A stretch of DNA of 64,000 nt from positions 62,001-126,000 of the forward strand of contig NZ_BCTW01000004.1 in assembly GCF_001590965.1 (NCBI RefSeq), given 5' to 3'. Under the pieces are notes generated by a model, which did no database searches, was not told the DNA's origin, and saw only the letters and a program-made list of their open reading frames with translations. Each line of letters begins with the position of its first letter. Position 1 is the first letter of the stretch. The translations under genes and the position numbers were made by a program. The stretch is from Novosphingobium lentum NBRC 107847 (GTDB lineage: Bacteria > Pseudomonadota > Alphaproteobacteria > Sphingomonadales > Sphingomonadaceae). Positions 15,942-26,939 of the stretch are shown in pieces.

Positions 15942-15994
15942 GTACATATAAACTCAAAAGTGGGAGCCGCCCCGCCCTTGCACTTTAATGATTT

Positions 15995-16073
15995 TTAGCG
16001 ATAATCCCTTCTAGCTACAGACGCATAATTAGCCAAATGCCAATGATTGGTTCAGGCTTTTATCTATCGCTAA
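15995..16073. promoter_or_regulatory. Separated inverted repeat in the leader of the MPE-STAND gene
   Basis: TTAGCGATA at 15995-16003 is matched by its reverse complement TATCGCTAA at 16065-16073, with 61 bp between. The right arm ends next to the ribosome site (AGAGGGA) of the downstream gene. The arms could be paired operator half-sites or form a long hairpin occluding translation. Confidence 0.45.
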
Positions 16074-16086
16074 GAGGGAATGTCAT

Positions 16087-19000
16087 TTGAGCAAGCTCAC
16101 CATTATCCACTTGTCGGATGTGCATTGGAGCTCGCGGACCAGACAAGGTCAAATGAAGATCATTTCCAGTCTCGAAAAAGACTTAGTTGCAATGGCTGAG
16201 CGTGGAGTAAATCCAGACTGCGTAATTTTTTCTGGCGATCTAGTTCAATCCGGAGATGCTTTAACTGATTTTGCGTGTGCCGACAGGGAGGTCCTCACCC
16301 CAATATTGCACAAATGCAATTTAGAGGTTGCTAACCTACTGGTGAGCCCCGGAAATCATGACATTTCGCGTTTGGAAGCTCGTAAACAAGAAACACTAGA
16401 AAGTGGATTGAAGGTTCAATTAAGTGAGCAACATGGTCTGGAAAAATTCTTTAGATCATACCGTGAAAACAACGATGTTGCCATTATTGCTCTATGGCGA
16501 ATGCAAAATTTTTACGAATGGTATGATAAAAAATTCCCGATTGATTACAAGATAGGCAATTTCTGTCGAATTAGAAAATTGAAAATCGGCACGAAAACTA
16601 TCGGTGTTGTCCTTCTAAATAGTGCTTGGCGTGCAACCGGTGAAGCGGGTGATGTCGATGATGGCAACCTCATAGTGGGCCTTGAAAATGTCGAGCGAGC
16701 GGTCTCGTATTTGGGCGAATGCGACTATAAAATATGCGTACTCCATCACCCATTCGAAAATCTGCTACATTTTGACAGAGTTTCTGTTGAAGCGCGGATC
16801 GCAAAAGAATTTGATCTGGTTTGCAGCGGCCACACGCATCGCCCTCGACCAGAGCGAGTCGAAGACATTTACGGATCAAGTGTCCGGAGTTCGGCGGGCA
16901 GCCTGTACGCTGGGTCAGAATGGTTTAACGGCTATCAAATAATTGAAATTGATTTTGTGCAAGACACAACCTCAATATATTGCCGTGAATATTTTCAATT
17001 AACTGACCGTTTTGCCGCTGCAGCAAACCTTACGAGCGCTGATCCATTGATTCTAAATTTTGCAGTGAAAATAAGAAATCCTGCCGATCAAATAGAGTTA
17101 ATGCTACAGAACAATAGAGGCATTATTTCAGATAAATTCATCGACCATCTGAATTTTGCGCATAACGAAATTGATGATCAAAAATCATTCATAGACGGCT
17201 ATGCTTGTCCAAAGCTATATACGCTTGATGAAACAAAATTAGACGAAGCGGGTAATTTAACTGAAAATTTTAAGAAAAAATCGCTCGATGAAATAATAAA
17301 ACTCCCGGAAAATGTATTTTTTCATGGAAGTAGGCAGTCAGGAAAAACCGGACTGAAGCTACACGTTGCTTACAGATACGCTCTTGGCATTGGCTGTGAT
17401 TTAAAAATCCCTGTCTTTATTGATGCTAATGATTTTTCTTATAATCTTTATGGAATTAGAAGAGCTGTTCAAAGAGATTATGATATTCCTAATAAATTTG
17501 AATTCGAAAGCGCTGTAAAAAATGGTCAATTTGTCTTTCTAATAGAAGATATCGGCCAGATGGACGATGATAGCTTGCGGATGCTGAATAAATTCTCCGA
17601 AAATTTCAAACCCTGTCGAACGTTCGCATTTGGATGTCCAGACGAAAATTCACTTTCTAAACAGCGGCATTTTAAAAAACTTCTGCCCGAGTTTGTTGGT
17701 GTGGGGTTGGGCCAACTGACTCGTAGTGCAATTCGAAAAATGACTCATACTTGGTTTGGTGATGGCGTTGAAGGAAAAAGCAAATTTGATTTGGTTGTAG
17801 GGCAAATTAATAGAGATGGTTTGCCAAAAACGGCCTACATGGTTGGCTTATTACTTTGGGCAGCTAAGCAGGGTCAGCAGGGAGACCGTCTAAATGAGGC
17901 CATCTTACTTCAAAATGTACTAGATCATTTGCTCGGAAGATCAGATTTCCGTTCTGCAAAGCGTGGTAGTCTGACCACGAAAGGCAGGGAATTGCTCCTC
18001 AACACTATCGCTAATAAACTAGATCAAGCCGGTGGATCTGTTAGATCAGGTGATTTGGTGGTATGGGTGGAGGAATATTTTTCAAAAAAGAAGCTGCGTC
18101 ATGATTCAGTTGATGTCGTGGGTGATCTCGTGAATTGTGGCATATTGAAACGAGATAATGGTGATATATCTTTTAGATATAAATGTTTTCAGGAATTTTA
18201 CATAGCTCTGGGAATGATTGACCCGGTTGAGCGCGATAACAAGTCGAGTGGCCTGCAATTTCTTCGTCGAGGACGAGAGATTGAACTATTGTCGGGCCTG
18301 CAGTCCGAAAATAATTCGCTCATTGAAAATATTTTGGACGTTCTGGAGAAAAGAACTCCCAGAGATTTAGCGAAAGTAACATACGCAGATTTCGAATCCG
18401 CAGCCTTTGGCACCTCAAAGGCTTTCGTAACTCGGGACAGAATGCGAAGTATTAGACGTACGAGACTTACTGATGATCAACTGGATCAGGTAATGGATGC
18501 ACTTGATGACCGGGCGACCTCGCGCGGGGATCGGCCGTTAAGTGAAAGTTTAGAAGAATCTGGTGGAGATTTAGTAGGAGCAGCCTCACTTCGTCAAGCT
18601 GAAGCGGTAAAGATGGATGTTGACTCAGATTCGGAAAATCTTCGGCCAGGCACATTTATGGCGGGACTAACGATTTTAGCTCGGGTACTCCGTAATTCAG
18701 ACCATACCGATTTTGAGGTCAAGGGCCCTGCTGTTGATCGTCTACTTGATGCTTGGTGCAGAATTCACGTCATGTTGACTGCAGAGCTACGTTGGATTTT
18801 GGAAAGGTTGGAGGATAAGCAGAAAGATAAACTAACGGAGCAAGAGTTTGAGACGTTGGTAACAATTATCGCGAAGATGTTATTTGGAGTTATCGCTGAA
18901 GGGATTGTTTCCGATCTTTCGACTCCTGCACTTTGTGAATCTCTACATGAGCTGGATTCAAGTGGTTCTTTGGTCACTGGCAAGAAATTGATTAGCTTGA

Positions 19001-19278
19001 TGCTGCTTGAGGATGCTGATGATCCGACATGGCCCGATAAATGGAAGGGCGTGATTGATCAGGGTGATTCCACTCCTTTCGAAATTGATGCGTTGGTCGA
19101 TAGGCTCTGGCGATGCGTCAATCGGAAAGCATTGGATAGTGATCAGGATCGGCGGGTGATTAAAGTTGTCGATGCTATCGAATCACGCTTTGGTTGGTCC
19201 AACGAGAAAAAATCTTCCGTGATAGAAGAAATTCGAGGAATGGCTACAATCAAGAAGATTACAGAGGAAAAAGAATAG
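16087..19278 (+). CDS. Metallophosphoesterase-STAND NTPase fusion, candidate phage-defence protein
   Basis: A 1063-residue protein of three parts. The N-terminal calcineurin-like phosphoesterase has all its metal motifs: DVH at 11-13, GD at 50-51, GNHD at 89-92, a histidine pair at 220-221 and GHTH at 248-251. A P-loop NTPase domain follows, with Walker A GSRQSGKT at 414-421 and Walker B FVFLIED at 482-488. A helical part typical of STAND/NACHT proteins includes LTRSAIRKMTHTWF near 544 and FRYKCFQEFYIALG near 696-709. The C-terminal 350 residues are helical and unassigned, a likely sensor. The start is TTG with AGAGGGA upstream. The gene is very A+T-rich (17 G/C among 60 bases from 16501) and stands alone, as many horizontally moved single-gene defence systems do. 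Function is inferred. Confidence 0.82.
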   Translation: MSKLTIIHLSDVHWSSRTRQGQMKIISSLEKDLVAMAERGVNPDCVIFSGDLVQSGDALTDFACADREVLTPILHKCNLEVANLLVSPGNHDISRLEARKQETLESGLKVQLSEQHGLEKFFRSYRENNDVAIIALWRMQNFYEWYDKKFPIDYKIGNFCRIRKLKIGTKTIGVVLLNSAWRATGEAGDVDDGNLIVGLENVERAVSYLGECDYKICVLHHPFENLLHFDRVSVEARIAKEFDLVCSGHTHRPRPERVEDIYGSSVRSSAGSLYAGSEWFNGYQIIEIDFVQDTTSIYCREYFQLTDRFAAAANLTSADPLILNFAVKIRNPADQIELMLQNNRGIISDKFIDHLNFAHNEIDDQKSFIDGYACPKLYTLDETKLDEAGNLTENFKKKSLDEIIKLPENVFFHGSRQSGKTGLKLHVAYRYALGIGCDLKIPVFIDANDFSYNLYGIRRAVQRDYDIPNKFEFESAVKNGQFVFLIEDIGQMDDDSLRMLNKFSENFKPCRTFAFGCPDENSLSKQRHFKKLLPEFVGVGLGQLTRSAIRKMTHTWFGDGVEGKSKFDLVVGQINRDGLPKTAYMVGLLLWAAKQGQQGDRLNEAILLQNVLDHLLGRSDFRSAKRGSLTTKGRELLLNTIANKLDQAGGSVRSGDLVVWVEEYFSKKKLRHDSVDVVGDLVNCGILKRDNGDISFRYKCFQEFYIALGMIDPVERDNKSSGLQFLRRGREIELLSGLQSENNSLIENILDVLEKRTPRDLAKVTYADFESAAFGTSKAFVTRDRMRSIRRTRLTDDQLDQVMDALDDRATSRGDRPLSESLEESGGDLVGAASLRQAEAVKMDVDSDSENLRPGTFMAGLTILARVLRNSDHTDFEVKGPAVDRLLDAWCRIHVMLTAELRWILERLEDKQKDKLTEQEFETLVTIIAKMLFGVIAEGIVSDLSTPALCESLHELDSSGSLVTGKKLISLMLLEDADDPTWPDKWKGVIDQGDSTPFEIDALVDRLWRCVNRKALDSDQDRRVIKVVDAIESRFGWSNEKKSSVIEEIRGMATIKKITEEKE

Positions 19279-19292
19279 GAGAGGTTGTTATG

Positions 19293-19316
19293 GTACGAAT
19301 TGCGTCGTACGGTTTT
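19293..19316 (+). terminator. Weak terminator-like hairpin after the MPE-STAND gene
   Basis: GTACGA at 19293-19298 pairs with TCGTAC at 19305-19310 and is followed by GGTTTTG. The stem is short and the T run brief, so termination efficiency is doubtful. Confidence 0.3.
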
Positions 19317-19372
19317 GCTTGTAAGGCTTTTGACTGATAGTAACTTTACAGTTAGCAAGTACACACATAATT

Positions 19373-19585
19373 TTATCCCCCACCAATCCGCCCCGCTTCC
19401 ACATGCGCCAGCCACTCCAGCGCCGCGCGTTCTGCCTGCACCGCCGGGTTGTGGCCGTCGGCGGATGGGGGTGGGGGCAGTTCGGGGAAGCGGATGGCCT
19501 TGTGCCGCGGGCGGTCGGGCCAGGCTTGGCCCGAAAGCGGGGTGGCGGCCTTCATCCAGTCGTCGGGGAGGCTCGTGAGCGTCAT
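19373..19585 (-). CDS. Small hypothetical protein at the edge of the A+T-rich insert
   Basis: A 70-residue frame starting MTLTSLPDDWMK and ending EWLAHVEAGRIGGG. I do not recognise a family. Composition is that of the GC-rich core, but its TAA stop (19373-19375) lies exactly where the A+T-rich insert begins. The C-terminus may therefore have been truncated or altered by the insertion. There is no strong ribosome site, so it could be non-coding. Confidence 0.4.
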   Translation of the reverse strand: MTLTSLPDDWMKAATPLSGQAWPDRPRHKAIRFPELPPPPSADGHNPAVQAERAALEWLAHVEAGRIGGG

Positions 19586-19687: not shown

Positions 19688-20461
19688 CTAGGGATGGATG
19701 CGCGGGCCCTGGGGGGGGCGGTCTTCCGGTGGCGCGGCGAGCGCGGGCAGGGTGGGTGCGGGCTCATGGTCCTGCGGCGCAGGCTCGGGCGGCGGGGCGA
19801 CGCCGGCGGCGGCGAGCGCTTTGGCCACGGCCTCGCGGATCGCGTCCTGCTTTTCCGCTTCGCGTTGCGCCATCACCTTGTCGCGCATTGCGGCGACCTT
19901 GCGCAGGATGCTGTCGTTGATCTGCTTCACGCTGACGTGTTCGGCGCGGGCGCGTTCCTGTTCCCATTCGCGCCGCCATTCCTTCTTCATCCGCTTGAGC
20001 ATGCCGCGCGTCGCCGCGTTGGGGCGGCTGTCGGCGGCAAAGCGATTGGCGCTGCGGTTGCGCAGGATGAACATCAGCAGGCGGTCGTTGTAGACGCGGC
20101 GTGTGCCGACGATCTGGCCGAAGTGGTAGACGGGCACTTCGGTGCCGTGGAGCGCGCGCTCCATCGCCACGTCCTCCAGCCGTTTCACGCCCAGCTTGAG
20201 CGCGGCCTCCCACGCCTTGCGGAACGGGCCGCCCTCGGCATGGCGGCGCAGCAGGTACGCGCCTTCGGGCGTCATCCCCACGGTGTGCGCGGCGGCGCGT
20301 ACGCTGCCGAGGTCCGCCAGCGCCTCGATGAAACCGCGCTGGCGTTCCGGCGTCCAGCCATCGTGCCGGGTGGTGCCGCGCGGGACGGGGGCGAAGGCGG
20401 GAAGCAGGGGCTTGGGTGCGGGCGGTGGTGAGGGCGGTGGGGAGGGCGGTGGTGAGGGCAT
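19688..20461 (-). CDS. Conserved hypothetical protein with HTH-like core and Pro-rich ends
   Basis: The 257-residue product has a proline-rich leader, then TRHDGWTPERQRGFIEALADLGSVRAA-type sequence (about residues 30-60). This resembles the N-terminal helix-turn-helix of terminase-small-subunit-like proteins. A conserved core ending in FILRNRSANRFAAD follows, then a long charged helix and a Pro-rich tail. I recall similar proteins in sphingomonads, with unknown function. I chose the ATG at 20461 because AAAAGGA lies nine bases upstream; the frame stays open to 20542. That ribosome site lies inside a perfect 16-bp palindrome. Confidence 0.7.
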   Translation of the reverse strand: MPSPPPSPPPSPPPAPKPLLPAFAPVPRGTTRHDGWTPERQRGFIEALADLGSVRAAAHTVGMTPEGAYLLRRHAEGGPFRKAWEAALKLGVKRLEDVAMERALHGTEVPVYHFGQIVGTRRVYNDRLLMFILRNRSANRFAADSRPNAATRGMLKRMKKEWRREWEQERARAEHVSVKQINDSILRKVAAMRDKVMAQREAEKQDAIREAVAKALAAAGVAPPPEPAPQDHEPAPTLPALAAPPEDRPPQGPRIHP

Positions 20462-20472
20462 GGCAGCGGCGT

Positions 20473-20488
20473 CCTTTTCGCGAAAAGG
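20473..20488. promoter_or_regulatory. Perfect 16-bp palindrome over a ribosome binding site
   Basis: CCTTTTCGCGAAAAGG reads the same on both strands. On the minus strand its right arm supplies the AAAAGGA ribosome site of the hypothetical gene starting at 20461. It could be an operator or a self-pairing element that masks translation. Confidence 0.45.
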
Positions 20489-20701
20489 CGCGCAGCGTGG
20501 AACAAAAAGGGACCTGTAGGACAGTTGTTTTTTGCGGGGCACCGTCGTGGGGTCCGGACTGTTAATACAATTGCGTTCAATTATGAACGGATTCTGCCGA
20601 TACCGTGTCTCTGCGGTTCACCTCGGGGAGCCGATACCGGTCAGCGAAGACCCCGATCGCGGCGAACACGTCACCGCGCAGGGCCTTGCAGGAGACGTAT
20701 C

Positions 20702-23780: not shown

Positions 23781-24395
23781 CTACGGAGTTTTGGCGGGGG
23801 GCGTGTTCAAATTTTTAATCGCAGTTATTATGTTGTTTAAGCTATTTTCCGCCGCGTCGCGCTTTGCAGTTTCCTGGGCGAGCGCAGCATTCACTTTCTC
23901 TGTCGAAGCTTGTGAAGCTGCAATAAGTGCCACTGTTCCATGAATCAGGTAGGTATCAGCCTCAGTTTTCGCGTTATTCATGAGTAGCAAGCAGTAATTA
24001 TATGACGTTGTTCGCCACATCTCAACCATCTCTGTCCTAGATGATAGAATAATACTTGTCAGAATCGCAGAATCCGAAAACGATGCATTCGGCTTTTTAT
24101 CGTCAGCCGTTGAATTGGCTGACGCAGATAACGCCGTTTGAGTGGCCTGATTTACGCCTGTATCGGGCGGAGGTTCCGAGCAAGTAAATCTTGAGCTATC
24201 GCTGCGATTAGAGACGACCAACCTGCGATTGGAATTTAAGGATATGCCGGCTACGGGAGCATCTCCATTATGGTGTGTTGGCCCTCTTACGACTGGCTCA
24301 GTTCTTGTACTTCTTTCTAAGTATGTTTGAAGAGACGATGTGCAGCCGGATAAAGAGCTGACGCATAACAGCGCCAATGCTACATTTTTGAACAT
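23781..24395 (-). CDS. Putative lipoprotein, A+T-rich
   Basis: The 204-residue product has a lipoprotein signal (LCVSSLSGC, lipobox LSGC with Cys18). The mature region includes RRLVVSNRSDSSRFTCSEPPPDTG, resembling a widespread uncharacterised family I recall with a C-EP-PD motif. A largely helical C-terminal half follows, ending in Ala- and Lys-rich helices. It is clearly lower in GC than its neighbours and is flanked on its 5' side by about 430 bp of A+T-rich non-coding DNA, so it is probably acquired. Confidence 0.65.
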   Translation of the reverse strand: MFKNVALALLCVSSLSGCTSSLQTYLERSTRTEPVVRGPTHHNGDAPVAGISLNSNRRLVVSNRSDSSRFTCSEPPPDTGVNQATQTALSASANSTADDKKPNASFSDSAILTSIILSSRTEMVEMWRTTSYNYCLLLMNNAKTEADTYLIHGTVALIAASQASTEKVNAALAQETAKRDAAENSLNNIITAIKNLNTPPAKTP

Positions 24396-24824
24396 ACAGC
24401 CCCCTATATTTCACTAGGATACTATAAAAATTTTCAAAAATGACCCGATTATGCGTCTGTTATTTTAAATAAACTATCATATTTTTGGACGAATCGAAAG
24501 CGAAGTCTAAACTTTTTTATCACATTTCATTTTATTGACGTTCTAATCACTTAGGGAGCTGCGTGGTTTGAACTTCGCCGCAAAAATGATCCACACTCCC
24601 GACTCGATGTGTTTCGAACTGCTTCGAATCACATCGAGCCTCGGCAGGTCTGCGGACGTGACGCGTTTATGAGAAACGCCGCCGAGCCCCGAGTCACGAT
24701 GGCGTACTTATTGACTTACACGATGGGTTCCGTGCCGCAATTGCCAGAGACCAGGTGAGGCGCAACTCATGGCTCGCTTCGCCCCGCCAGACATTCAGCA
24801 ACGCACCATCCCAGCCCCCACCAG
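24396..24824. other. Gene-free A+T-rich stretch
   Basis: I see no convincing gene here. The left part (24396-24560) is A+T-rich and holds the presumed promoter of the lipoprotein gene. The centre has a long near-perfect inverted repeat (24603-24638). GC content rises to core level after about 24760, towards the katE stop codon. Confidence 0.6.
24603..24638. repeat. Near-perfect 16-bp inverted repeat (hairpin)
   Basis: CTCGATGTGTTTCGAA at 24603-24618 is followed by CTGC and then TTCGAATCACATCGAG at 24623-24638. The arms match at 15 of 16 positions. No T run follows, so it is probably not a simple terminator. It could be an element end, a protein site or a structured RNA. Confidence 0.6.
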
Positions 24825-26939
24825 TCACGCCAGCATGCGCACGTTTGGCTCCCGGTCCCAGTGGCGGGCCGGGGCGATGGCGAGGAATTCGCCGTTGGGG
24901 ACCACGCCGGCGTCGGGTTCGATCCCCAGCTTGTCGAGGATTTTCGCCTTGGTCGCCGGGCAGTAGCCGATGGTCTTGCAATGGCCGAAGGCATCCATGA
25001 ACCAGCCGAGCGCGGCGCCGTCCATCGCCAGTTTCGCGGCGGCGTCGGGCATCAGGATCGCGGCGACCGCGTCGAACAGCACCGAGGGTGATCCGGCCAG
25101 CTGCCCGTCGGCTTTGAGCGCGCCGCCCTTGAGCTTCAATTCGCCGACTTTGGGCGCGACGAGGAACGCGGTGCCGCCGGCCTTTTCCACGCCCGCCTTG
25201 ATCGCGTCGATCGCGGCCTTGTCCGAACCTTCATCGAACAGGATCGCGATCTTGCGGCCGTTCATGTCGGGCGCGTGGTTCTTCTGGATCGACAGCGCGG
25301 GGCTTTCGTCCATGTCGAGCGGTTCGCGCGCCGCCGGGGCCTTGGCCGGCAGCGGCATGGCAAGGCCGGCGGCGACGCGCGTCGCCAGATCCTCGTCGAT
25401 GTTGCGCAGGCGTGAGAGCACGCGCGTGCGGATCGCCTCGATCACCACCTTGCTCAGCTCGAAGGTCAGCGCACTGGCGATATGCGCCTGCTCGTTTTCG
25501 GTCTGCGAGCGGTAGAACAATCGCGCCTGGCTGTAGTGATCGGCGAACAGTTCGCCGCGCTCGCGCACTTTCATGCCGCCGTCGTTGCGCTCGTCGTTCG
25601 CGCGGAACGAGGCGAAGCCGGTGGCGGGGCATTCGCGCGGGCCGCCGTCCTCGCCCGCGTCGGCCAGGCTGTTGGGCTCATAGTTGGCGCGGCCCTTGGG
25701 CACCGCGGTCTGCATGTGCCCGTCGCGCTGGAAGTTGTGCATCGGGCACTTGGGCGCGTTGATCGGCAGCTGGTGGAAGTTGGTCGAGCCCAGCCGCTTG
25801 AGCTGCGTGTCGAGGTAGGAAAACAGTCGTCCCTGCAGCAGCGGATCGTTGGAAAAGTCGATGCCGGGGACGATGTTGGTCGGGCAGAACGCGACCTGCT
25901 CGGTCTCGGCGAAGAAGTTGTCCGGGTTGCGGTTGAGCGTCATCGTGCCGACCTTGCGCGGCGCCAGCACTTCCTCGGGGATCAGCTTGGTCGGATCGAG
26001 CACGTCATAGGGCAGCGACGCGGCGAACGCCTCGTCGAACACCTGCACGTACAGGTCCCATGCGGGGAAACCGCCGGCCTCGATCGCTTCGTACAGGTCG
26101 CGGCGGTGGTAGTCGGGGTCGGCACCGGCGATCTTGACCGCTTCGTCCCACACCGTCGACTGCACGCCAAGGTGCGGCTTCCAGATGAACTTGCAGAACG
26201 TGCCGTTGCCCTTGGCGTCGACCAGCCGGAAGGTGTGAATGCCGAAGCCTTCCATCATCCGCAGCGAGCGCGGGATGGCGCGGTCGCTCATCGCCCACAT
26301 CACCATGTGCATCGCCTCGGGCATCAGGCCGATGAAATCCCAGAACGTGTCGTGCGCGCTGGCCGCCTGGGGATAGCCGCGATCGGCTTCCATCTTCACG
26401 CTGTGGATCAGGTCGGGAAACTTGATCGCGTCCTGGATGAAGAACACCGGGATGTTGTTGCCGACCAGATCCCAGTTGCCTTCGTCGGTATAGAACTTGA
26501 CCGCGAACCCGCGCACATCGCGCGGCGTATCGACGCTGCCCGCGCCGCCCGCGACGGTGGAAAACCGCGTGAACAGCGGCGTCTGCTTGCCTTTGGTGGC
26601 AAACAGCGAGGCCTTGCTCAGCTCGGGGATCGGATCGGTGCATTCGAACACGCCGTGCGCGGCAGACCCGCGCGCGTGGACGATGCGTTCGGGAATGCGC
26701 TCGTGGTCGAAATGGAAGATCTTCTCGCGCAGCACGAAGTCCTCGAGCAGCGTGGGCCCGCGCGCGCCGGCCTTCAGGCTGTTCTGGTTGTCGGCAATGC
26801 GCAGGCCCTGGTTGGTGGTGAGGTGCGACGTTTCGCTGGCGTGATCGCCCTTGGCAGCAACCTGCTGGTGCGTCTCGCCACCGGGGCCGCGCTGGAAGGC
26901 AAAGGCGTCGCCGCCGGGGCTGTCGGGCTTCTGGGCCAT
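24825..26939 (-). CDS. katE: Catalase HPII, large-subunit clade
   Basis: Haem catalase that disproportionates hydrogen peroxide. The 704-residue length marks the large-subunit clade. The distal haem pocket shows RIVHARG (catalytic His88) and [12 protein letters not shown] (Asn). The proximal ligand motif RLFSYLDTQ supplies the haem-binding Tyr. The last 150 residues form the DJ-1/PfpI-like domain of this clade ([13 protein letters not shown] onwards). GGAGAG lies upstream of the ATG, and a candidate EcfG promoter suggests general-stress control. Confidence 0.97.

What the first reader, a model, noticed from the sequence alone, without database searches (positions are those of the whole stretch)
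16087..19278. Single-gene metallophosphoesterase-STAND fusion, candidate anti-phage system
An intact calcineurin-like phosphoesterase (all five metal motifs) is fused to an intact P-loop STAND/NACHT-like NTPase and a long unassigned helical C-terminus. The gene is A+T-rich, alone, and inserted in GC-rich core DNA. STAND proteins with an N-terminal nuclease or hydrolase and a C-terminal sensor include the Avs and bacterial NACHT phage-defence families. The phosphoesterase would be the effector, possibly cutting nucleic acid or a nucleotide messenger after the C-terminus senses a phage product. I do not recall this combination as a described system.
Basis: partly seen in the sequence, partly recalled or inferred. 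Interest (0 to 1): 0.82.

Follow-up and report, generated by a model that had tools for sequence, protein, structure and literature searches.

The report
Phosphoesterase–NACHT defence gene beside lepA
A single foreign-looking gene in this bacterium encodes a metal-dependent phosphoesterase joined to a switch-like ATPase; it belongs to a recently described type of anti-phage protein and sits in a chromosomal slot next to the gene lepA where related bacteria carry different defence genes.

Summary
Window 16087-19278 (+) is one intact 1063-codon gene with all metallophosphoesterase motifs, P-loop motifs and a helical C-terminus, 42.6% G+C in a 65.3% window. The defence reading is supported; the novelty claim is not. 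The protein matches PADLOC candidate PDC-S60 over most of its length (E 2.7e-92) and, far below the equivalog cut-off, NCBIfam DS8_antiphage. DS-8 is a single-gene metallophosphatase-NACHT system of E. coli shown to block phages, both domains essential (Science 2026; passages read). So this is a divergent member of a known kind.

The new part is the site. The gene lies between lepA and a conserved ~284-aa gene, r19688. r19688 was found near lepA in 11 of 76 genus and 20 of 60 family loci; between them lie unrelated genes. One cargo gene from each of the 20 was scanned: 14 of 20 hit a defence profile at E<=1e-7, against 0 of 91 and 2-11 of 47 flanking ORFs. Four of nine family members examined, the window's included, sit directly behind lepA. 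Substrate and trigger remain unknown.

The parts
16087..19278 (+). metallophosphoesterase-STAND/NACHT-like single-gene defence protein, 1063 aa, TTG start
16087..17001 (+). calcineurin-like metallophosphoesterase domain (residues 1-305), predicted effector
   Evidence: Pfam PF00149 at 5-253; all metal ligands present
16117..16125 (+). metal motif I, D11-V-H13
16234..16239 (+). metal motif II, G50-D51
16348..16362 (+). metal motif III, P88-G-N-H-D92
16744..16752 (+). metal motif IV, H220-H221-P222
16828..16839 (+). metal motif V, G248-H-T-H251
17272..18216 (+). STAND/NACHT-like NTPase region (residues 396-710); domain edges approximate
   Evidence: motifs, PF24406 at 657-706, PDC-S60 match 5-931
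17326..17349 (+). Walker A GSRQSGKT (414-421)
17530..17550 (+). Walker B FVFLIED (482-488)
18217..19275 (+). helical C-terminal domain (711-1063), inferred sensor
   Evidence: secondary structure of low-confidence models; 15-19% identity in the five most distant aligned members
15942..19380 (.). low-G+C insert between lepA and the conserved right-hand gene; right edge approximate
   Evidence: G+C step; nucleotide similarity of relatives stops at or within a few bases of the lepA stop codon
14139..15941 (+). lepA (elongation factor 4), left flank of the hotspot
   Evidence: ORF; strong matches in 30 of 31 genomes, own included (the 31st, G130, has only a weak one)
19688..20542 (-). r19688 (my label), conserved ~284-aa gene of unknown function, right flank of the hotspot
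   Evidence: tblastn behind lepA in 11 of 76 genus loci and 20 of 60 family loci; no Pfam hit at E<=0.001

Best explanation
A single-gene anti-phage system of the PDC-S60/DS-8 kind, acquired horizontally into a defence-gene hotspot between lepA and r19688. Most likely mechanism (inferred): the helical C-terminus senses a phage product; the ATP-driven STAND/NACHT-like module switches and oligomerises; this activates the N-terminal two-metal phosphoesterase, which hydrolyses a phosphodiester or pyrophosphate target needed by phage or host (a nucleotide, a signalling nucleotide or nucleic acid) and stops infection. Shown here: architecture, motifs, family, foreign base composition, and a site shared with other defence genes. 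Shown elsewhere for DS-8 (PMC13092281): defence, and its dependence on both domains. Not shown in anything I read: trigger, oligomer, substrate.
For: PADLOC PDC-S60 308.5 bits, residues 5-931 against 2-894 of 1027. NCBIfam DS8_antiphage E 1.1e-35, best stretch 8-505; all 8 relatives scanned also have it as top family. DS-8 blocks phages, and phosphoesterase or NTPase mutants lose defence. Hotspot: one cargo gene from each of 20 family intervals was scanned and 14 of 20 hit PADLOC at E<=1e-7; in the genus 5 of 19 scanned cargo ORFs did. Flank controls: 0 of 91 in the genus, between 2 and 11 of 47 in the family. At E<=1e-30, a threshold chosen after seeing the control, it is 8 of 20 against 0 of 47 and 0 of 91. 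Mobile context of other relatives: a plasmid copy near a recombinase, Dcm, HNH, Vsr and integrase; a split copy between a repressor-like gene and phage tail-type genes. Sporadic: 3 of 195 genus genomes, own included.
Against: The DS8 score (122.8) is far below the equivalog cut-off (790), so equal function is not implied. The structure models are too poor to prove the NTPase fold or name the C-terminal fold. The Walker A lysine is arginine in 2 of 9 rows. PADLOC profiles also ring on flanking genes, as the 47-ORF control shows. The hotspot was studied only where r19688 lies near lepA: the other 65 of 76 genus loci (a few of them listed) and 40 of 60 family loci were not scanned for cargo, G021 apart. 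In the genus, 7 of 11 intervals had no scanned ORF at E<=1e-7. No experiment was possible.
Confidence: 0.8

Rival explanations
1. The phosphoesterase is a nuclease of the SbcD/Mre11 kind that cuts phage or host DNA when the STAND switch closes, rather than a nucleotide phosphodiesterase.
For: The family profile matches SbcD and Mre11 structures (E 1e-5 to 4e-5) nearly as well as lmo2642 and Rv0805 (about 1e-6). PADLOC's 'Effector' model described as endonuclease matches 6-253 with E 1e-16. PHROG 100, named SbcD-like, matches with best stretch 482-805. Foldseek lists Mre11 among its best hits.
Against: These matches cover the shared catalytic fold and do not name a substrate. DS-8 was likened by its authors to SMPDL3A, a cGAMP phosphodiesterase.
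Confidence: 0.35
2. A housekeeping or regulatory partner of LepA (translation), kept in a lepA operon, not a defence gene.
For: 4 of 9 members examined, the window's included, lie directly downstream of lepA on the same strand, with a gap of about 20 bases in G563.
Against: Most relatives lack it: 3 of 195 genus genomes have any match, and tblastn found none behind lepA in 76 genus loci or 60 family loci. The slot holds unrelated genes on both strands in others. Low G+C. Other relatives lie in a phage-like region, on plasmids or elsewhere.
Confidence: 0.05
3. A decayed or inactive remnant.
For: Some relatives are interrupted by transposase-like ORFs (G400, G357) or split in two frames (G009).
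Against: The window copy has an uninterrupted 1063-codon frame and all catalytic motifs; G+C by codon position is 0.54/0.37/0.38.
Confidence: 0.05

Closest known systems
DS-8 (DefensePredictor discovered system 8), E. coli; NCBIfam NF053861
   Same: One protein: metallophosphatase plus NACHT-type NTPase (paper passages); homologous, best stretch 8-505
   Different: Score 122.8 against an equivalog cut-off of 790; best stretch ends at 505.
PADLOC PDC-S60 (PDLC05051), PADLOC candidate single-gene system
   Same: Match over 5-931 of 1063, E 2.7e-92
   Different: A database candidate; no paper naming it was found
DS-9 (metallophosphatase plus HAD phosphatase), NCBIfam NF053862
   Same: Related phosphoesterase domain (E 6.1e-11)
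   Different: Two genes with a HAD partner
Calcineurin-superfamily effectors of GAP1-N1 and vWA-MoxR conflict systems (PMC7159879, passages)
   Same: Calcineurin-type phosphoesterase predicted as effector of NTP-dependent conflict systems
   Different: Multi-gene GTPase or MoxR-vWA systems, not a fusion to this NTPase
Avs / bacterial NACHT (bNACHT) systems (recalled)
   Same: Effector - STAND/NACHT NTPase - C-terminal sensor logic
   Different: Different effector; no such profile of PADLOC was hit
Rv0805 / lmo2642 / SbcD / Mre11 phosphoesterases
   Same: Catalytic fold and metal motifs
   Different: The match covers the N-terminal domain only

Membership tests
PDC-S60 | Match to PADLOC model PDLC05051 over most of its length | tested here: met
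   308.5 bits, 2-894 of 1027 positions
DS-8 (NF053861 equivalog) | Score at or above the curated cut-off of 790 bits | tested here: not met
   122.8 bits
DS-8-like metallophosphatase-NACHT systems (wider kind) | Single protein with intact metallophosphoesterase motifs followed by a P-loop NTPase | tested here: met
DS-8-like metallophosphatase-NACHT systems (wider kind) | Protection against phage, lost on catalytic mutation | not testable with these tools
   shown for DS-8 only (PMC13092281, passages)
STAND/NACHT NTPases | Curated NACHT or nSTAND domain match | tested here: met
   PF24406 nSTAND_NTPase4 above cut-off at 657-706; PF05729 NACHT not matched
STAND/NACHT NTPases | NTPase fold in residues 400-710 on structure prediction | tested here: inconclusive
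   model pLDDT 49.7; Foldseek matches to Sso1545 and NLRP3 NACHT at E 1.5e-3 and 2.5e-3
Avs (AVAST) | Match to an Avs profile in PADLOC | tested here: not met
   only PDC-S60 and the 'Effector' model were hit
Defence hotspot at lepA-r19688 | Conserved flanks with interchangeable, mostly defence cargo | tested here: met
   met for the r19688-bearing subset at family level (14 of 20); weaker in the genus (4 of 11 intervals at E<=1e-7)

The most novel reading that the evidence does not exclude
The lepA-r19688 interval is a long-lived exchange slot in this family-level group (which includes Pelagerythrobacter). Single defence units are swapped there, perhaps by recombination in the conserved flanks (I saw no site-specific integrase in the intervals by eye and did not search for one), and phosphoesterase-STAND proteins have entered it at least twice. 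These proteins would destroy a still unidentified phosphodiester target on phage sensing, that is, a new effector chemistry or signalling nucleotide.
Probability: 0.55. Interest if true: 0.6.

Novelty: new member of a known kind. Interest (0 to 1): 0.47.

Why it matters
The gene adds divergent members to a barely characterised effector class (metallophosphoesterase-NACHT), useful for finding trigger and substrate. The lepA-r19688 slot, which two paper searches did not turn up (open-licence library, most listed papers not opened), gives a simple address at which to look for defence genes in a large bacterial family. Some cargo genes behind lepA (a 715-aa ORF, a DUF6119 protein, a SIR2-TPR protein) had no PADLOC hit and are candidates by position.

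Tried and rejected
A viral-contig search with the nine-row alignment failed because no block was conserved enough. With the single protein it found no relative; with a four-row alignment it found two distant loci. The phage collection gave no tblastn match at E<=1e-5. A Klebsiella plasmid relative used as DNA query found no E. coli match, so DS-8's own sequence could not be compared.

AlphaFold2 was limited by the input rule to the window and related-loci loci (4 and 3 rows) and gave poor models. Foldseek of the C-terminus gave nothing at E<=0.001. Promoter and terminator scans were at chance.

An integration model with a duplicated lepA 3' end was tested. No second copy lies in the window; of 76 relatives only G181 has a clear one, and G117 a 15-base match. 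A lepA-operon model was set aside because of mixed cargo and strands. The tree puts the window with G711 and G502 (98/97) and G563 on a long, unsure branch (71/79); it cannot tell repeated entry from old inheritance with many losses.

Slip in the family count: the cargo gene scanned was meant to be the largest low-G+C ORF of each interval, but in L178 I took a 395-aa ORF (no hit) and passed over one of 482 aa at G+C 0.59.

Papers: PMC13092281 outline, abstract and passages; PMC7159879 passages; PMC9122126 one passage, where 'lepa' is an author's name. Other papers were seen in search listings only.
Full report
Check of the observation. The ORF at 16087-19278 (+) is intact: 1063 codons from a TTG start to a stop. 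It is 42.6% G+C, with 37.5% at third positions, in a window of 65.3%. The low-G+C segment runs from just behind the lepA stop (15941) to about 19380. The own genome gives one match, this gene. The five metal motifs of a calcineurin-like phosphoesterase are present; the ligands are kept in 8 of 9 alignment rows, window included, and the ninth lacks the start of the domain. Pfam Metallophos is above its cut-off. Walker A and B are present. Pfam names nSTAND_NTPase4 at 657-706 but does not hit NACHT. K420 is arginine in 2 of 9 rows.

What it is. PADLOC's candidate PDC-S60 matches residues 5-931 with E 2.7e-92; an 'Effector' endonuclease model matches 6-253 with E 1e-16. NCBIfam's DS8_antiphage matches with E 1.1e-35, best stretch 8-505, but at 122.8 bits against an equivalog cut-off of 790. 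All 8 relatives scanned have DS8_antiphage as top family, at 104-194 bits, also below cut-off. From passages of PMC13092281 (the paper was not read whole): DS-8 is a single E. coli protein with a metallophosphatase and a NACHT domain. It gave phage defence; [quoted passage not shown] what it degrades is not identified; the authors liken the domain to human SMPDL3A. The architecture proposed as new is therefore described. A search for PDC-S60 in print found nothing. Calcineurin-type phosphoesterases had also been predicted as effectors of multi-gene conflict systems (PMC7159879, passages).

Relatives. In 195 genomes of the genus, 3 have a match, the own included. A PDC-S60 search rang in 29 of 397 family genomes at E<=0.001, 6 of 296 order genomes and 16 of 398 phylum genomes at E<=1e-15, own included each time; many of these are short matches to the phosphoesterase part, and 7 of 14 control genomes ring at the loose threshold. 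I looked at the neighbourhood of nine members within the family: own, G711, G502, G444, G357, G563, G400, G063, G009; others, such as G577, were not placed. Identity to the window is 35% (G711), 34% (G502), 30% (G444) and 19-23% for the five other aligned members; G563 aligns at 30% over 292 residues of the N-terminus. The C-terminus falls to 15-19% in the five distant members while the phosphoesterase stays at 23-32%, as a sensor might. Mobile settings: a Sphingomonas parapaucimobilis plasmid copy near a recombinase, Dcm, HNH, Vsr and an integrase; a Sinorhizobium plasmid copy with a tyrosine recombinase some 5.6 kb on; and a viral-collection contig, identical over the gene to G009, in which the gene is split into two frames between a repressor-like gene and tail-type genes (gene names by eye).

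The site in the genus. Nucleotide similarity to relatives stops at or within a few bases of the lepA stop codon. I fetched the region behind lepA from 76 other genomes of the genus, chosen mostly by lepA similarity, not at random; 6 of 76 reach less than 3 kb. The window's right-hand gene r19688 lies within 9 kb of lepA in 11 of 76. One interval is nearly empty (G043). The others hold different genes: HNH+Dcm (G181), HNH (G183), a NACHT protein (G010), a ParA-like protein with a sub-threshold HEPN match (G017), NsnA plus a second gene (G160), NsnA+HEPN+Dcm (G019), DUF6119 (G029), a 715-aa protein without hit (G077), a 514-aa protein that looks like a membrane glycosyltransferase by eye (G027), and transposase-like ORFs by eye (G117). 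G021, without r19688, has a SIR2-TPR protein convergent with lepA. PADLOC at E<=1e-7 rings for 5 of 19 cargo ORFs scanned, of 24 found, in 4 of 11 intervals, against 0 of 91 flanking ORFs of the same loci; Fisher p about 1e-4. In the remaining 65 loci the cargo was not scanned beyond G021 (some are listed and include ordinary genes); a low-G+C island (under 0.56 over 750 bases) lies within 6 kb of lepA in 15 of the 70 loci long enough.

The site in the family. One genome from each of 60 genera was fetched; three loci were cut short by contig ends. r19688 lies within 8 kb of lepA in 20 of 60. One cargo ORF per interval, meant to be the largest low-G+C one (one slip, see Tried and rejected), was scanned: 14 of 20 hit PADLOC at E<=1e-7, among them Dcm, type IIG R-M (2), type II REase models (2), HEC-01A, a reverse transcriptase, PD-Lambda-5_A, LmuA/SIR2, an AriA/Old-like ATPase, NsnA/REase and HNH. 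The matched control, 47 ORFs beyond r19688 in 19 of the same loci, was not clean: 9 families rang, in between 2 and 11 of 47 ORFs (the tool tallies by family), best E 4.7e-27 for a Pycsar-cyclase model. Even at 11 of 47 the contrast holds (p 7e-4); at E<=1e-30, chosen after seeing the control, it is 8 of 20 against 0 of 47 (p 2e-5). No tblastn match to the window protein lies behind lepA in these 60 loci or in the 76 genus loci.

DS-8-like genes at the site. Of the nine members examined, four lie directly behind lepA on its strand: window, G711, G563, G400. r19688 follows in the window, G563 and G400; in G711 tblastn found none. G400's copy is interrupted by a transposase-like ORF. G502's contig starts about 0.8 kb before its ORF and shows no lepA there. 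The tree groups the window with G711 and G502 (98/97); G563 is on a long branch of unsure place. This fits at least two entries into the slot, but old inheritance with much loss is not excluded.

Mechanism. By analogy with DS-8 and STAND proteins: sensing by the C-terminus, NTP-driven switching or oligomerisation, and activation of the two-metal phosphoesterase. Only the parts list and the motifs are shown here. Structure prediction gave no reliable model under the input limits (pLDDT 49.7 and 60.1). Foldseek's first hit is 9a6c_B, titled YYDD-YYDB, E 4.3e-10; then Rv0805 (1.2e-6), Mre11 (6.4e-5) and NadN (2.1e-4), and weaker Sso1545 (1.5e-3) and the NLRP3 NACHT domain (2.5e-3). For the C-terminus nothing is significant. 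The substrate class is open: the family profile matches lmo2642 and Rv0805 at about 1e-6 and SbcD/Mre11 at 1e-5 to 4e-5.

Verdict. Observation confirmed; defence interpretation well supported; novelty claim not supported. The gene is a new, divergent member of a known kind. The added finding is a defence hotspot between lepA and r19688 that two searches of an open-licence paper library did not turn up (of the papers listed only PMC9122126 was looked into).

Noticed in passing
L173:4157-7338 (identical in G009 contig 9): A phage-like region carries a divergent phosphoesterase-STAND gene split into 155-aa and 910-aa ORFs overlapping by 19 bases, between a repressor-like gene and tail-type genes; frameshifted or two-gene form not resolved.
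   Followed up: partly
L108:13010-13060 (G181): A second, diverged copy of the lepA 3' end (about 50 bases) lies just behind lepA, followed by HNH and Dcm genes, suggesting import together with another lepA tail.
   Followed up: partly
L096:7001-11376 (G400) and L095:8403-13292 (G357): Two relatives of the gene are interrupted by transposase-like ORFs, judged by eye.
   Followed up: no
L102:9729-13286 (G021): A 1186-aa SIR2-TPR protein convergent with lepA, with no PADLOC hit; candidate defence gene by position.
   Followed up: no
L161:9031-11175 (G077) and L170:9264-10901 (G029): Low-G+C cargo genes at the lepA site without PADLOC hit: a 715-aa protein without Pfam match and a DUF6119 protein; candidate defence genes by position.
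   Followed up: no
window 19688-20542: r19688 has no Pfam match but three more distant matches (33-45% identity) in the own genome; its function and why it flanks the slot are unknown.
   Followed up: partly
window 23781-25000: A second, weaker G+C dip (0.505 in 24001-25000) with a 204-aa lipoprotein-like ORF on the minus strand nearby.
   Followed up: no
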